DNA of 64,000 nt from Acidobacteriota bacterium. Its GTDB lineage: Bacteria; Acidobacteriota; Blastocatellia; Pyrinomonadales; Pyrinomonadaceae. Made by a program: the position numbers and the translations under genes. Positions 186 through 59,929 of this stretch are shown here, piece by piece (position 1 is the stretch's first letter; each line of letters opens with the position of its first letter). The DNA is taken from NCBI GenBank assembly GCA_019639235.1, contig JAHBSG010000004.1:1-64000 (forward strand). Reading direction: 5' to 3'. The notes under the pieces were generated by a model that did not search any database, was not told the origin of the DNA, and saw only the letters and a program-made list of their open reading frames with translations.

Positions 186-827
186 CTATTTTGATGCACT
201 TACCGAGACCCTCTCTTGTATCTGCCTCTCAATTTGAGACTTGAAACCGTCCGACAAATTTTCGCAGGAGGATAAACTCGTCCCGTAGCTGATTACAACC
301 TCGGCCTTCCCATCTTCGGAAGACGTAAAATACTGCTTCAAATAAAAAGGCAATGCAAAATTGAATCCTGTTTTGCGGATAAACTGTATTTGCGGGTTAC
401 CATTCAATTCGGTTTCGTCTTCCGCACTTGCGCATTGTTCTCTGGATGTGAACGTCAGCCCGTTCAGCTTACCCGGGGTCAGGTTACTGTAATCCAGCCC
501 GCCACTGCCGTCCGTGTGTGTTTCTGCATGAACCATAACTAAATACTTTCCATCGGAAAATGCAGCAAACGAAACATTGAATTGTTTTTTGTCATACGTC
601 GGCCGGTGATGAAGTTCGCCGAGTAGTTTAAATGCAGGATCTATTTTGATCTCATACTTTGCCTGGTGCGTGGTCTTAACACTGTTGCCGCGAACGGTTA
701 AATAATCGAAACCTGATTGCTGAGCCGATCCGGGAGAGAAACCGAAGAGAACCACTCCCATTAAAGAAATCCAGAAGACCGCAGGCACTAGACGAGGGGC
801 ATCGATCAATTTGTATATCGGTGACAT
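186..827 (-). CDS. Secreted protein of unknown function
   Basis: I do not recognise a family. The start at 827 gives a short N-terminus followed by a hydrophobic stretch (about residues 15-35) and an AQQ cleavage-like site, so export is likely. The mature part of about 175 residues is polar, beta-rich in appearance, with two Cys that could form a disulphide. The ATG overlaps the asnB stop codon as TGATG, which suggests translational coupling. An ATG 27 bases upstream at 854 is an alternative start inside the asnB tail. Neither start has a clear Shine-Dalgarno sequence. The stop lies at 186 and the 118 bases between it and the iminopeptidase start hold nothing I can name. Confidence 0.65.
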   Translation of the reverse strand: MSPIYKLIDAPRLVPAVFWISLMGVVLFGFSPGSAQQSGFDYLTVRGNSVKTTHQAKYEIKIDPAFKLLGELHHRPTYDKKQFNVSFAAFSDGKYLVMVHAETHTDGSGGLDYSNLTPGKLNGLTFTSREQCASAEDETELNGNPQIQFIRKTGFNFALPFYLKQYFTSSEDGKAEVVISYGTSLSSCENLSDGFKSQIERQIQERVSVSASK

Positions 828-2767
828 CACGCTGACAAAAAATTCCGACTCCATAACTGAAAGACGAGCAGCGTCCAGAGTTCCTTGTGGTGCGAGGCTC
901 GGCCGGTTTCGTGTTCGGTGATGAGACGCTGGACGTAGTCGGGGTTGAAGAGGCCCTGTTGCTTTAACCTCTCGGGTGCGAGCATGTCGTGCATCAGCGG
1001 ATTGAGGCGGCCTTTGAGCCATTCGGCGATCGGGATGCCGAAGCCTTTTTTCGGGCGGTGAAGGATATCCTGCGGGAGCAGGTCCCGCATCGCCTCTTTC
1101 AGGATGACCTTGCCGCTCTTGCCTTTCAGCTTGTATTCGACCGGGATAGACGCGGCGAACTGGCCGACACGTGGGTCAAGGAAAGGTGCACGCGTCTCCA
1201 GGCTGACTGCCATCGCGGCCCGATCGACCTTGGTCAAAATATCCTCGGCGAGATAGTAGTTTATGTCGGCGTACTGCATCTGCTCGATGACATTTTTTGC
1301 ATCGGAACCGCCGACGAGTTCACGCACGCCGCTGTAAATGTCGGCATCGGTTTGAGCGAGAAAATCCTTCGAAAAAAGCTGCTTGTGCTGGTCGACCGAG
1401 AACGAACCGAACCACGAATGGTGCCGCGTAACGTCGTCGTAATGCGAGGCACGGACGAACCGCTTTGCCTTGTAATCGAACGACATATTCTTGGTCGAAA
1501 CGGGCAGTGCGTTGACGAGCGGCTCAATGAAACCGCGGCGGAGGATCGACGGGATCGCCAGATACTTTGCCGCCACGGTGTGGGCGTAATACATCGGATA
1601 GCCGGCGAAAAGCTCGTCGCCGCCGTCGCCGCCGAGTGCGACCGTGACGTGCTTGCGGACAAAACGGGCAAGCAGAAAGGTCGGTATCAGCGAGCCGTCG
1701 GACATCGGCTCATCGAGCCAGGTGCCGATCTCCGAGATCAGGTCGCCGGCGGTCGCGGCGGAAAGCTTGTCTTCGTAATGCTCGGTGTTAAGGTGCCGGG
1801 CGACCTGCCTCGCGTATTTCGATTCGTCAAAGCTGTCTTCCTCAAACCCGATCGAGAAAGTCTTTACGCGCTCGGTCGCGTGCTGAACGGCAAAGGCCGC
1901 GACAGTCGATGAGTCGATTCCGCCGGAAAGCAGAATGCCGAGCGGAACATCCGAGACAAGCCGCATTCGGACGGCATCGGAGAGCAGATCGCGGAGTTCT
2001 TCTGCTTTACGAACGAGCGTTCCATCTCCGCTCAGAGAACCACCCCGGCCTTCGGCCACGCCTCCTTCGAAAGGAGGGGAGCTAGTCCAAGAGATATCCC
2101 AATAGCGGCGGGTTGTTACTTCGCCGTTCTCGACCGTGAGGACGTGTGCGGCCGGAAGTTTGTGGATGCCTTTGAAGATAGACATCGGCGCCGGGACGTA
2201 GTCGAAGGAGACGAAGTGGCGGAGCGCGTTCAGGTCGAGTTCGGGCTTGACGGCGGGGTGGGCGAGTATCGCTTTTAGCTCAGAGGCCCAGATCAGCGTG
2301 TCATCGAAGACGCCGTAATATAGCGGCTTTTCGCCGAAGCGGTCGCGGGCGATGACCAGCTTCTTTCGCCGCGAATCCCACAGCGAAAAGGCGTACATAC
2401 CGTTTACGTGTTCGAGCAAGCCCTCGCCATACTCTTCGTAAAGGTGCGGCAGGACCTCGGTGTCGGACTTGGTGGTAAACTTGTGGCCTTTCTTTTCGAG
2501 CTCAGCGCGAACCTCGCGGTAATTATAAAGCTCGCCGTTCATCATCACGACGACCGACCGGTCGCAATTGAATACAGGCTGGTCGCCGGTCTCAAGATCG
2601 ATGATCGAAAGCCGCCGCATGCCGAGCGCGACCGTCTCATCAAGCCACAGCCCCTCCGAATTCGGCCCCCGATGCACGATCGTGTCACACATCAAGTGCA
2701 GCACCTGTTCGGCACCGCCGTTCGAATCAGATCGTTTTAGGTTTATCCAACCCGCTATTCCACACAT
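827..2767 (-). CDS. asnB: Asparagine synthase (glutamine-hydrolysing)
   Basis: Transfers ammonia from glutamine to aspartate with ATP, or aminates a sugar or peptide substrate as related enzymes do. The start at 2767 is set by the MCGIAGW motif, which places the Ntn nucleophile at Cys2; longer readings only translate an upstream repeat. The glutaminase domain fills about residues 2-200 (RRLSIIDLETGDQP, MMNGELYNYREVR). The synthetase domain follows with the PP-loop LSGGIDSS near residue 280 and the GGDGGDELFAGYP segment. At 646 residues it is of usual length apart from about 15 linker residues encoded by a palindromic repeat (2041-2082). The next genes upstream and downstream are co-directional. 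Proximity to a GT2 glycosyltransferase leaves open a role in surface polysaccharide amidation. Confidence 0.92.
   Translation of the reverse strand: MCGIAGWINLKRSDSNGGAEQVLHLMCDTIVHRGPNSEGLWLDETVALGMRRLSIIDLETGDQPVFNCDRSVVVMMNGELYNYREVRAELEKKGHKFTTKSDTEVLPHLYEEYGEGLLEHVNGMYAFSLWDSRRKKLVIARDRFGEKPLYYGVFDDTLIWASELKAILAHPAVKPELDLNALRHFVSFDYVPAPMSIFKGIHKLPAAHVLTVENGEVTTRRYWDISWTSSPPFEGGVAEGRGGSLSGDGTLVRKAEELRDLLSDAVRMRLVSDVPLGILLSGGIDSSTVAAFAVQHATERVKTFSIGFEEDSFDESKYARQVARHLNTEHYEDKLSAATAGDLISEIGTWLDEPMSDGSLIPTFLLARFVRKHVTVALGGDGGDELFAGYPMYYAHTVAAKYLAIPSILRRGFIEPLVNALPVSTKNMSFDYKAKRFVRASHYDDVTRHHSWFGSFSVDQHKQLFSKDFLAQTDADIYSGVRELVGGSDAKNVIEQMQYADINYYLAEDILTKVDRAAMAVSLETRAPFLDPRVGQFAASIPVEYKLKGKSGKVILKEAMRDLLPQDILHRPKKGFGIPIAEWLKGRLNPLMHDMLAPERLKQQGLFNPDYVQRLITEHETGRASHHKELWTLLVFQLWSRNFLSA
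2041..2082. repeat. Palindromic repeat inside asnB coding sequence
   Basis: CCTCCTTCGAAAGGAGG at 2061-2077 is a perfect 7-bp-arm hairpin. Beside it is a second small hairpin, GGCCTTCGGCC at 2047-2057. On the minus strand the element is read in frame as SSPPFEGGVAEGRGG, in the linker between the glutaminase and synthetase domains of AsnB. The Gly/Pro-rich peptide is unlike the flanking enzyme sequence, which suggests insertion of a mobile palindromic element without breaking the frame. Confidence 0.7.
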
Positions 2768-54021: not shown

Positions 54022-55248
54022 TCAGATAAGTTCGACAAAAACTTCGTTAGAGTACAACATTCCTTTTCGGGTCAGTCGAAGGTGGCCTTCTGAGATCTCC
54101 ACCAGGCCACTTTCGTTTAACCTGGAGATGCTTTCCATCAAAACGGATCCAAACCGGTTGACATATGCAGATACACTAATGCCCTGGTTCATGCGAAGGC
54201 CGAGGAAGGCGAATTCCGATGCGAGGTTGATGGTTTCGCGGTAGGTCTCGGCGGATCCGGTGCGTTCGATCATTTCGACGTATCTGGCCGTGTCGCGTTC
54301 GTTAGCATAACGCTCGCGGCCGTCGAATGAATGGGCTGAGACGCCAAAGCCGACGACCGGTTCGAGCCGCCAGTATTTTGTGTTGTGGCGAGATTCAAAT
54401 CCGGGCTTGGCAAAGTTCGAGATCTCGTACTGCTCGTAGCCCGCGGCGGCGAGCCGGTCGAGCATCATCTCGTACATCTCGGCGGCGAGTTCGTCTTCGA
54501 TCGGCGTCCGGCGGCCGCTGCGGACCTGCTCGGCGAGCGGAGTCGATTCGTGAATTTCGAGCAGATAAAGCGAAAGGTGCTCGGGCTCCATCGCTATCGC
54601 TTCATCAAGATTTCGCGACCAATCCTCGACCGTTTGTCCCGGCAATCCGGCGATCAGGTCAAAGCTGATGTTCGCGAAGCCCGACTCGCGGAGCATCCGG
54701 TAGGTTTGCCGTGCGTCGTTCGCATCGTGCCCGCGGGCAAGCAGCTTGAGGTCGCGTTCGTTGAAGGTCTGGACGCCGAAACTCGCCCGGTTGATGCCGA
54801 GCCTTTTGTAAGCATCGAGCTTCTCCAGCGTTACCGTCGCCGGGTTCATTTCCATCGTGATCTCGGCCGATTCAGCCACAGAGTACACCGAGGTCACAGC
54901 GTTTAGAACTCTCTCTATCTGTTCGGGTTCGAGCAGCGAAGGCGTGCCGCCGCCGAAGTAGATGGTGTCGATGGGTTTAACGTAAGACGGAGAGACACTG
55001 AGACGCGGGGACACGGGGATTACTGCCGTAACGTTCTCCGCGTCGCCGCGTCCCTCTCTCTCCGCGTCTTTCTCTCTGTTCGCTAACGAACGCGGTTCCG
55101 TCCGGATCTCGCGGCAAAGCGCGTCGACGTACCGCTCGACGGCACCCGAGTCGCGATAAACGTCCGTCGCGAAGTCGCAGTACGAACACCGCGACTTGCA
55201 GAAAGGTATATGAAGATAGAGACCAGGTTTACTGCTTTGGTTGGCCAA
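54022..55248 (-). CDS. hemW: HemW-like radical SAM protein (heme chaperone family)
   Basis: 408 residues. Radical SAM cluster CKSRCSYCDF (CxxxCxxC) near residue 17; GGGTPSLL and the SAM-binding segments MEMNPATVTLEKL, SFGVQTF and ISFDLIAGLPGQT follow. YEISNFAKPGFESRHNTKYW, common to HemW, is intact, and the C-terminal HemN-type helical region is present. Residues about 53-91 (REKDAEREGRGDAENVTAVI and PVSPRLSVSPS) are an unusual insert encoded by a repeat. Its start overlaps the end of the upstream secreted-protein gene by 20 bp. Confidence 0.9.
   Translation of the reverse strand: MANQSSKPGLYLHIPFCKSRCSYCDFATDVYRDSGAVERYVDALCREIRTEPRSLANREKDAEREGRGDAENVTAVIPVSPRLSVSPSYVKPIDTIYFGGGTPSLLEPEQIERVLNAVTSVYSVAESAEITMEMNPATVTLEKLDAYKRLGINRASFGVQTFNERDLKLLARGHDANDARQTYRMLRESGFANISFDLIAGLPGQTVEDWSRNLDEAIAMEPEHLSLYLLEIHESTPLAEQVRSGRRTPIEDELAAEMYEMMLDRLAAAGYEQYEISNFAKPGFESRHNTKYWRLEPVVGFGVSAHSFDGRERYANERDTARYVEMIERTGSAETYRETINLASEFAFLGLRMNQGISVSAYVNRFGSVLMESISRLNESGLVEISEGHLRLTRKGMLYSNEVFVELI
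54985..55070. repeat. GACGCGGA-type inverted repeat inside hemW coding sequence
   Basis: Left arm GGAGAGACACTGAGACGCGG then GGACACGGGGA (54985-55017), right arm near CTCCGCGTCGCCGCGTCCCT (55037-55060) and CTCTCCGCGTC. The arms are approximate reverse complements of GACGCGGxGACGCGGAG words. It encodes about 35 residues between YVDALCREIR and IDTIYFGGG in HemW, a spot where related proteins have a much shorter loop. Confidence 0.72.
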
Positions 55249-57664: not shown

Positions 57665-59929
57665 TCAGCTAAGTTCGTGTTCAAGCGCCGATTCCCAGAT
57701 GGCCTCGAGTTCGGCGACGGGAGAGGAGACGGTACTTTGGCCGTCAAGAGAGATATTCAGAACATCATCGCGCACCGTGCCGATGACCGCAAAGGGAAGT
57801 CCGGCGGCGAGTTCGCGAACCCGGTCTAGATTCTCGGGGGCAAAGCTGATAACGACCCGCGTCGGCGACTCGGCAAATAGCGCGGCCTCGGCTGAAAGTC
57901 CGTTCGTTTCAAGCTCGATCTCGGCCCCGTGCGCCTCGCGGCCGAGCGACGAAAAGCACGATTCGGCGATCGCAACCGCCAGCCCACCCTCCGAGCAATC
58001 ATGAGCTGAGGAAAGCAGCATCGCGTCCGCCATTGCGATCAGGGCGTCCTGCAGCTTTCGCTCAAGGCCGAGGTCGATCCGCGGCAGGCGGCCCGAGGCG
58101 ATCATATCGGCGGTCGAAACCTCGACGATGGTAGCGGCAAATTCGCTTACGGAAAGATCGTCGCCGGTCGAGCCAAGAAGCGCGATCGCATCGCCGTCAT
58201 TCTTAAAACCCTGCGTGATTACCTTGCGAATGTCTTCGATCAGCCCGACCATGCCGATCGTCGGCGTCGGCAAGATGCCCTTGCCGTCGGTTTCGTTATA
58301 AAAGGAAACGTTGCCGGAGACGACCGGCGTTTCAAACGCCTCGCAGGCCTCGGCCATTCCGTCGATGACGTCCGAGAAGGAACGCATCACCTCGGGTCGC
58401 TCGGGCGAGGCGAAGTTGAGGCAGTTCGTTACCGCGATCGGCCGGGCGCCGACGCAGGCGACGTTGCGAGCCGCCTCGGCGACGGCATGCTTTGCGCCTT
58501 CGAGAGCATCGACGGCGACAAGCCGGCCGGGGCCGTCAAGGCACATCGCGATCGCCCGGCGGGTTTCCTTTACGCGGATAACGGCCGCATCGGCACCCGG
58601 CAGAACCGCCGTGTTCGTCCGCACCATCGAATCGTATTGCTCATAGACCCAGTGCTTTGAGGCGATGTTCGGCGAAGCTAGGAGCTGTTTCAGAGACGCG
58701 GCGACGTCCTGACGCGGTGACGCGGAGATGGGAAGCGCACCGTGTCTCTCGTTCTCCGTGTGCCCGTGTCGCACCGACTCGGCCATCGGCCGTTCATATT
58801 TCGGCGCTTCGTCGGTAAGTGCCATCACCGGAAGGTCGGCCGCGACCTCGCCGTTGTGGATGATCTTAAGGCGGTCGCCCTCGACCACCTTGCCGATGAC
58901 GACCGCGTCGAGGTCCCATTTATTGAAGATCTCGACGACCTCTTTCTCGCGGCCCTTGCGAGCGACGATGAGCATCCGCTCCTGCGATTCGGAAAGCATC
59001 ATCTCGTAGGCCGTCATTCCGGTCTCGCGTTGCGGAACGAGCGTCAGGTCGAGTTCGAGTCCGGTGCCGGCACGTGCGGCCATCTCGACCGAACTGCTCG
59101 TCAAGCCCGCGGCTCCCATATCCTGAATACCCTCGATCGCCCCAGACCGCATTGCCTCTAGGCAGGCTTCGAGCAGAAGCTTTTCAAGGAAAGGATCGCC
59201 GACCTGGACGGTCGGGCGCTTTTCGAGCGCCTCGTCGTCAAACTCGGCCGAGGCCATCGTCGCTCCATGTATACCGTCGCGGCCTGTCTTCGCACCGACG
59301 TACATCACCGGGTTGCCGATGCCTGACGCCTTTCCGAAAAAGATCTGGTCCTTACGGACAATGCCGAGTGCGAAGGCATTTACGAGCGGATTAAGCGAAT
59401 AGCTTTCGTCAAAGACGACCTCGCCGCCGATGGTCGGCACACCAAAGCAGTTGCCATAATGGCCGATGCCCTCGACGCAGCCTTTGAGTATCGAGCGATT
59501 GCGGTTCCCGTGGTTAGGGTGATCGAGCGGGCCGAAGCGGAGCGAGTTCATTGCAGCCACGGGCCGGGCACCCATTGTAAACACATCGCGAAGAATGCCG
59601 CCGACACCGGTCGCTGCTCCCTGAAAGGGCTCTATAAACGAAGGATGGTTGTGCGACTCGACCTTGAAGGCAACACACCAGTCGTCGCCGATATCGACGA
59701 CGCCGGCATTCTCGCCCGGCGGGACGATCACACGCGGGCCGCGGGTCGGGAGCCGCTTCAGATGCACTCGCGAAGATTTGTACGAACAATGTTCCGACCA
59801 CATCACACTGAAAACGCCGAGCTCGGTCAGGTTCGGCTCGCGGCCCATTATGTTGACGATCTTTTCGTACTCGGCGGGTGAAAGCCCGTGCTGCTCGACG
59901 ATCTCCGGCGTGATGGCTGCTTCGTTCAT
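57665..59929 (-). CDS. purL: Phosphoribosylformylglycinamidine synthase subunit II
   Basis: 754 residues. Small-type PurL, which makes FGAM from FGAR with ATP and ammonia from PurQ. Landmarks: [10 protein letters not shown] near residue 46, [54 protein letters not shown]-type [20 protein letters not shown], and in the second half [20 protein letters not shown] and [15 protein letters not shown]. Residues about 385-415 are an extra segment encoded by a GACGCGG-type repeat. The first 63 codons plus promoter are duplicated at 61361-61615. purS and purQ are not in the window. Confidence 0.95.
58692..58773. repeat. GACGCGG-type inverted repeat inside purL coding sequence
   Basis: Left arm GACGCGGTGACGCGGAG (58711-58727) and right arm CTCCGTGTGCCCGTGTCGC (58754-58772) are near reverse complements, with ACGCGG against ACACGG giving G-T pairs. 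It encodes about 30 residues ([20 protein letters not shown] then PRQDVAASL) between PKYERPMAE and KQLLASPN. Related PurL proteins have a short, variable linker there. Confidence 0.72.

What the first reader, a model, noticed from the sequence alone, without database searches (positions are those of the whole stretch)
2041..2082. Second palindrome type in frame inside asnB
CCTCCTTCGAAAGGAGG plus a GGCCTTCGGCC hairpin encode SSPPFEGGVAEGRGG in the domain linker. It is a different element family from the GACGCGG one but has behaved the same way, which suggests tolerance of several palindrome families in coding linkers.
Basis: partly seen in the sequence, partly recalled or inferred. Interest (0 to 1): 0.65.

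Follow-up and report, generated by a model that had tools for sequence, protein, structure and literature searches.

The report
Recurrent palindrome insertions in asparagine-synthetase linker
A short hairpin-forming DNA repeat has inserted, in frame, into the loop joining the two halves of an acidobacterium's asparagine synthetase, and related species carry several unrelated repeats in that same loop, which shows that certain protein loops repeatedly collect small mobile-like DNA.

Summary
The feature is a 50-nt two-hairpin element at 2034-2083 (minus strand), encoding SSPPFEGGVAEGRGGSL in the linker between the two AsnB domains. It is a shortened copy of a dispersed family, here "A": AGCTCC-CCTCCTT-NNN-AAGGAGG-GGTGG-[covarying hairpin]-ACGGGGTGG-TTCTCT. 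There are about 42 copies in this genome, and 34 of 37 same-genus genomes carry it. It is not in Rfam, and strict-pattern matches turn up in many phyla. At least 16 copies lie in frame inside 12 Pfam-recognised genes here, nearly always in one sense and one antisense frame. AsnB orthologs decide the question. The same linker is empty in some species and holds family A, B, C or D in others. A-E share no similarity beyond chance, and B, C and D are dispersed in those genomes. AlaRS and GltX loops show the same pattern. The class is known (Rickettsia palindromic elements, intragenic REPs). New here are the family, the host group, and clear evidence for insertions of different origin at one site. 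The mobilising enzyme is unknown.

The parts
2034..2083 (-). Family A two-hairpin dispersed element, 50-nt shortened copy, read in frame by asnB (peptide SSPPFEGGVAEGRGGSL)
   Evidence: covariance model R1 match, 60.3 bits; comparison with G031 shows a 9-nt in-frame loss in hairpin 2
2061..2077 (.). Hairpin 1 core, CCTCCTT-CGA-AAGGAGG, the 17-base palindrome of the finding
2047..2057 (.). Hairpin 2, GGCC-TTC-GGCC, the variable but covarying hairpin of the family
827..2767 (-). asnB, glutamine-hydrolysing asparagine synthetase; the element lies between GATase_7 (51-169) and Asn_synthase (257-640)
   Evidence: Pfam; solved homologs 1ct9 and 6gq3
55002..55068 (-). GACGCGG-type (family E) repeats, in frame inside a HemN/HemW-like radical SAM protein
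   Evidence: absence from orthologs not tested
58695..58725 (-). GACGCGG-type (family E) repeats, in frame inside PurL between its two AIRS halves
   Evidence: absence from orthologs not tested

Best explanation
The feature is one copy of a small, non-autonomous, dispersed palindromic element (family A, normally about 56-59 nt, two hairpins) that inserted into the asnB linker before this species split from its relative G031. It survives because the insert keeps the reading frame, has no stop in the frame used, encodes a short Gly/Ser/Ala/Pro-rich peptide, and lies in a flexible inter-domain linker. Unrelated palindromic families have inserted independently into the same linker in sister species, so the linker is a permissive site that samples whichever small element is active in each lineage. 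SHOWN: dispersal, in-frame position, empty and occupied alleles, several unrelated families at the same site, and the same pattern in AlaRS and GltX. INFERRED: that copies move by a single-strand (REP-like) process acting on the hairpins, that out-of-frame or disruptive insertions were removed by selection, and that the peptide is neutral.
For: Dispersed family: 29 exact palindromes and 42 model hits below E 1e-6 in this genome; 34 of 37 same-genus genomes have it. Structure kept by compensatory change: hairpin 2 here, and both hairpins across distant phyla, with 118 double-change cells against 27 in shuffles (that alignment was fitted to the model and leans towards it). In-frame insertion into Pfam-recognised genes: 16 internal copies in 12 genes, including MutS2, AlaRS, GltX, an M1 aminopeptidase and an acyl-CoA ligase with three. 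Frame use: 32 of 33 genic copies in three genomes use two of six frames, although four of the six frames of a 58-mer are open. AsnB linker: 12 to 49 codons, six short empty examples and several unrelated families. Families B, C and D are dispersed in those genomes; A-E are mutually unrelated. The AsnB tree mixes element types (G000 A beside G010 C; G004 A beside G032 C; G011 A beside G034 B). Same pattern in AlaRS and GltX loops.
Against: No clean empty site with near-identical flanks was found, so exact insertion boundaries and any target duplication are unknown; nearest relatives mostly carry inserts at the same sites. None of the ten Y1-transposase loci in this genome is flanked by family A, so the mobiliser is unidentified. 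AsnB tree support is moderate, and exchange of linker segments between lineages could account for some replacements.
Confidence: 0.86

Rival explanations
1. The inserts are functional: mRNA hairpins at a domain boundary slow the ribosome, or the peptide improves the linker, so palindromes were recruited by selection whatever their family.
For: Different families, all hairpins, sit at one inter-domain boundary in AsnB; hairpins are intact in young copies.
Against: Several species have short element-free linkers. In AlaRS the site is a loop inside a domain, not a boundary. Dispersed repeats in these genomes are largely palindromes, so hairpins at the site need no extra cause. The decayed G011 copy has lost its stem with about four synonymous and four non-synonymous changes, no sign of purifying selection on the peptide (hand count).
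Confidence: 0.07
2. [quoted passage not shown]
For: Same site in many species; A is shared at the identical base position by G000 and G031.
Against: [quoted passage not shown] A, B, C and D each match an independent dispersed family in the same genomes, often at few mismatches. Short empty linkers exist.
Confidence: 0.04
3. The linker is an actively targeted integration hot spot (sequence- or structure-directed), rather than merely a tolerated one.
For: Repeated hits on the same loop in AsnB, AlaRS, GltX and a GltD-like protein.
Against: No shared target sequence was apparent, and unrelated families would all need the same target. Survivorship at tolerant loops explains the pattern more simply.
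Confidence: 0.08

Closest known systems
Rickettsia palindromic elements (RPEs) and Wolbachia palindromic elements
   Same: [quoted passage not shown] orthologs sometimes carry different groups near one site (PMC3767692, PMC10969869).
   Different: Different host phylum and, as far as seen, different sequence. Here the families at one site are demonstrably unrelated and separately dispersed; for RPE-4/6/7 the authors favoured a single origin and left hot spots open.
CGTC-tagged REPs (PMC3733652)
   Same: Read on the other strand, hairpin 2 is preceded by CGTC and followed by CCA in most copies; intragenic copies are described; no linked transposase is known.
   Different: Hairpin 2 has a 4-6 bp stem rather than 8-9 bp, lacks the near-invariant AT start of the stem, and is fixed to a second conserved hairpin.
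GTAG REPs with REP-associated tyrosine transposases (RAYT/TnpA-REP)
   Same: Small hairpin repeats; the genome encodes Y1 transposases, some with matching hairpins at both flanks.
   Different: No GTAG foot on the hairpin and no Y1-transposase gene flanked by family A.

Membership tests
Protein-coding palindromic element / intragenic REP (RPE-like, as a kind) | Short palindromic repeat dispersed in the genome | tested here: met
Protein-coding palindromic element / intragenic REP (RPE-like, as a kind) | Copies inside recognised genes without breaking the frame | tested here: met
Protein-coding palindromic element / intragenic REP (RPE-like, as a kind) | Absent from the same gene in some relatives | tested here: met
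Rickettsia palindromic elements (by descent) | Sequence relationship to the named RPE families | not tested
   RPE consensus sequences were not compared
CGTC REP | Terminal CGTC tag and CCA tail | tested here: met
   complement of the GACGGG and GTGG that flank hairpin 2 in most copies
CGTC REP | 8-9 bp stem with AT at its first two positions | tested here: not met
   4-6 bp stems of varied sequence
GTAG REP / REPtron | GTAG at the foot of the hairpin | tested here: not met
   consensus; only a subfamily has GGTAGA, well away from the stem
GTAG REP / REPtron | Copies flanking a Y1 transposase gene | tested here: not met
   (own genome only)
MITE | Terminal inverted repeats and target-site duplication | tested here: inconclusive
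   no terminal inverted repeat in the consensus; no clean empty site for a duplication test
Rfam RNA family | Match to a curated model | tested here: not met

The most novel reading that the evidence does not exclude
Certain protein loops in this genus are true recurrent integration sites for several unrelated palindromic element families, so element turnover continually rewrites the same linkers of core enzymes, perhaps with functional effect on folding or translation.
Probability: 0.2. Interest if true: 0.78.

Novelty: new variant of a known kind. Interest (0 to 1): 0.57.

Why it matters
Work on Rickettsia left open whether different palindromic elements at one gene position are separate insertions at hot spots or one insertion that diverged (PMC3767692). 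This genus answers that for its own case: the occupants of one linker are unrelated, and those tested are independently dispersed. It gives a group with dozens of sequenced species in which insertion, in-frame survival, stacking and decay can be followed gene by gene. It also yields a natural map of insertion-tolerant loops in core enzymes.

Tried and rejected
The fold energy of the asnB copy alone gave nothing. A search for family A around Y1-transposase genes gave no match. Joined flanks of twelve copies were prepared and six were searched against four relatives for empty sites; most sites there were occupied too, so no boundary or duplication could be read. A literature search by sequence fragment returned only unrelated papers. 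Rfam gave nothing for the element. Long ORFs across the GAT-loop subfamily (L014, L039, L043, L044, L048) were not counted as insertions: they lack domains on both sides of the element.

Full report
1. What is there. The window is G000:C34:1-64000 of a 3.84-Mb genome. asnB lies on the minus strand, with GATase_7 at residues 51-169 and Asn_synthase at 257-640. The complete element is 2034-2083 and is read as SSPPFEGGVAEGRGGSL in the linker between the two domains.

2. It is a dispersed family. The exact palindrome with a three-base loop occurs 29 times in the genome and never in the reversed control. The copies share AGCTCC-CCTCCTT-ACG-AAGGAGG-GGTGG, a variable hairpin, then ACGGGGTGGTTCTCT. 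The variable hairpin changes by compensatory substitutions (18 double-change cells; shuffles average 5.8). A covariance model finds 42 copies below E 1e-6. A subfamily with a GAT loop and a GGTAGAAAG tail also exists. 34 of the 37 same-genus genomes carry the family but none of 23 other same-class genomes, and in a wider acidobacterial sample only members of this genus matched. Both hairpins covary across those phyla (on an alignment fitted to the model). Rfam has no match.

3. It enters genes in frame. In this genome 16 internal copies lie in 12 genes with Pfam support: MutS2, a P-type ATPase, a GltD-like oxidoreductase, a DUF4153 protein, a thioredoxin-reductase-like protein, AlaRS, an acyl-CoA ligase (three copies), a reductase/ligase protein, an M1 aminopeptidase (two), GltX, an M14 peptidase (two) and AsnB. 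G013 adds DnaE, GidA/MnmG, GltX, ABC, aldehyde-oxidase-type and GltD-like proteins. Across G000, G013 and G009, 32 of 33 genic copies use one sense frame (SPPYEGGVAAASADGVVL type, 24) or one antisense frame (mostly ENHPVGETPTPLLRKEGS type, 8). The single exception is at a protein N-terminus. Four of the six frames of the usual 58-mer are open, so the choice of frame suggests selection for harmless peptides. ORFs were chosen for being open across the element, so this count says nothing about how many frameshifting insertions were lost. In G013 two copies lie head to tail 57 bases (19 codons) apart. In G003, by contrast, almost all sampled copies are intergenic. In-frame cases outside Acidobacteriota include a polyketide synthase and a Patescibacteria formyltransferase.

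4. AsnB orthologs. All 41 genomes searched in the genus have an AsnB match; 30 loci were aligned. The linker ranges from 36 to 147 nt. Six are short and element-free. Others hold family A (G000, G031, G013, G004, and a decayed copy in G011), B with EPGAVATG (G012, G015, G034), C with ADTPVRMSVASTR (G010, G020, G032), or D with PTNFSL/TNLSL (G005, G035, G062). E, with TQRRK-type 8-base repeats, is stacked next to others in G012, G015, G017 and G031. Model scores confirm the A copies. B, C and D are dispersed in the genomes concerned, including hits at these very AsnB positions; E was not searched genome-wide. No pair among A-E is more alike than shuffled sequence. G000 and G031 share the insertion point exactly (TGG ACT AGC TCC), and the G000 copy has lost nine bases of hairpin 2. 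A short contig, C39, in the same assembly carries a second AsnB allele with A plus E at the same site, either a paralogue or a related strain. The AsnB tree places different element types as sisters, though ten of its 27 inner branches are unresolved.

5. Other genes agree. The AlaRS loop after SGGQVGDTG is empty in several species. In others it holds A in two antisense frames, B, or a PPATAGGS family related to B. The GltX loop before NIET holds A, an AETRPVGSV family, or nothing.

6. How it works. Shown: dispersal, in-frame position, empty and occupied alleles, and unrelated families at one site. Inferred: copying by a single-strand process acting on the hairpins, followed by selection that leaves only in-frame insertions in tolerant loops. 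The mobiliser is not identified. The genome has ten Y1-transposase loci, some with matching hairpins of their own at both flanks, but none next to family A. Insertion boundaries could not be read, because close relatives mostly carry inserts at the same sites.

7. Known and new. In-frame palindromic elements are known as Rickettsia palindromic elements (PMC10969869, PMC3767692) and intragenic REPs (PMC3733652). The last paper already suggests that insertions may be neutral in flexible linkers. For Rickettsia, PMC3767692 left open whether different elements at one site are separate insertions or one that diverged, and favoured a single origin for RPE-4/6/7. Here separate origins are clear. The element resembles CGTC REPs in its tag and tail but fails their stem criterion, so it is not filed there. 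That the finding is a new variant of a known kind rests on the held literature; subscription papers could not be searched.

Noticed in passing
window 55002-55068 and 58695-58725: 8-base GACGCGG(A) tandem repeats in frame inside a HemN/HemW-like radical SAM protein and PurL; the same repeat type is stacked in AsnB linkers of four relatives.
   Followed up: partly
L341 (G013, DnaE), 1165-1420: Several family A copies alternating with an IQNPKSKIQN-encoding repeat at a 102-base period inside the DNA polymerase III alpha gene.
   Followed up: no
L049 (G000:C39): A 4-kb contig of the same assembly carries a second, about 89% identical asnB with families A and E in its linker; a paralogue or a related strain.
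   Followed up: partly
window 2061-2077 and family A consensus: Each arm of hairpin 1 is a perfect Shine-Dalgarno/anti-Shine-Dalgarno pair (AAGGAGG/CCTCCTT); whether this matters for translation is unknown.
   Followed up: no
L062, L063, L068, L069: Y1-transposase genes flanked on both sides by their own 8-bp-stem hairpins, matching in three of the four loci (REPtron-like), distinct from family A.
   Followed up: no
G003 versus G013 loci (L331-L362): Family A copies sampled are almost all intergenic in G003 but about half lie inside long ORFs in G013.
   Followed up: no
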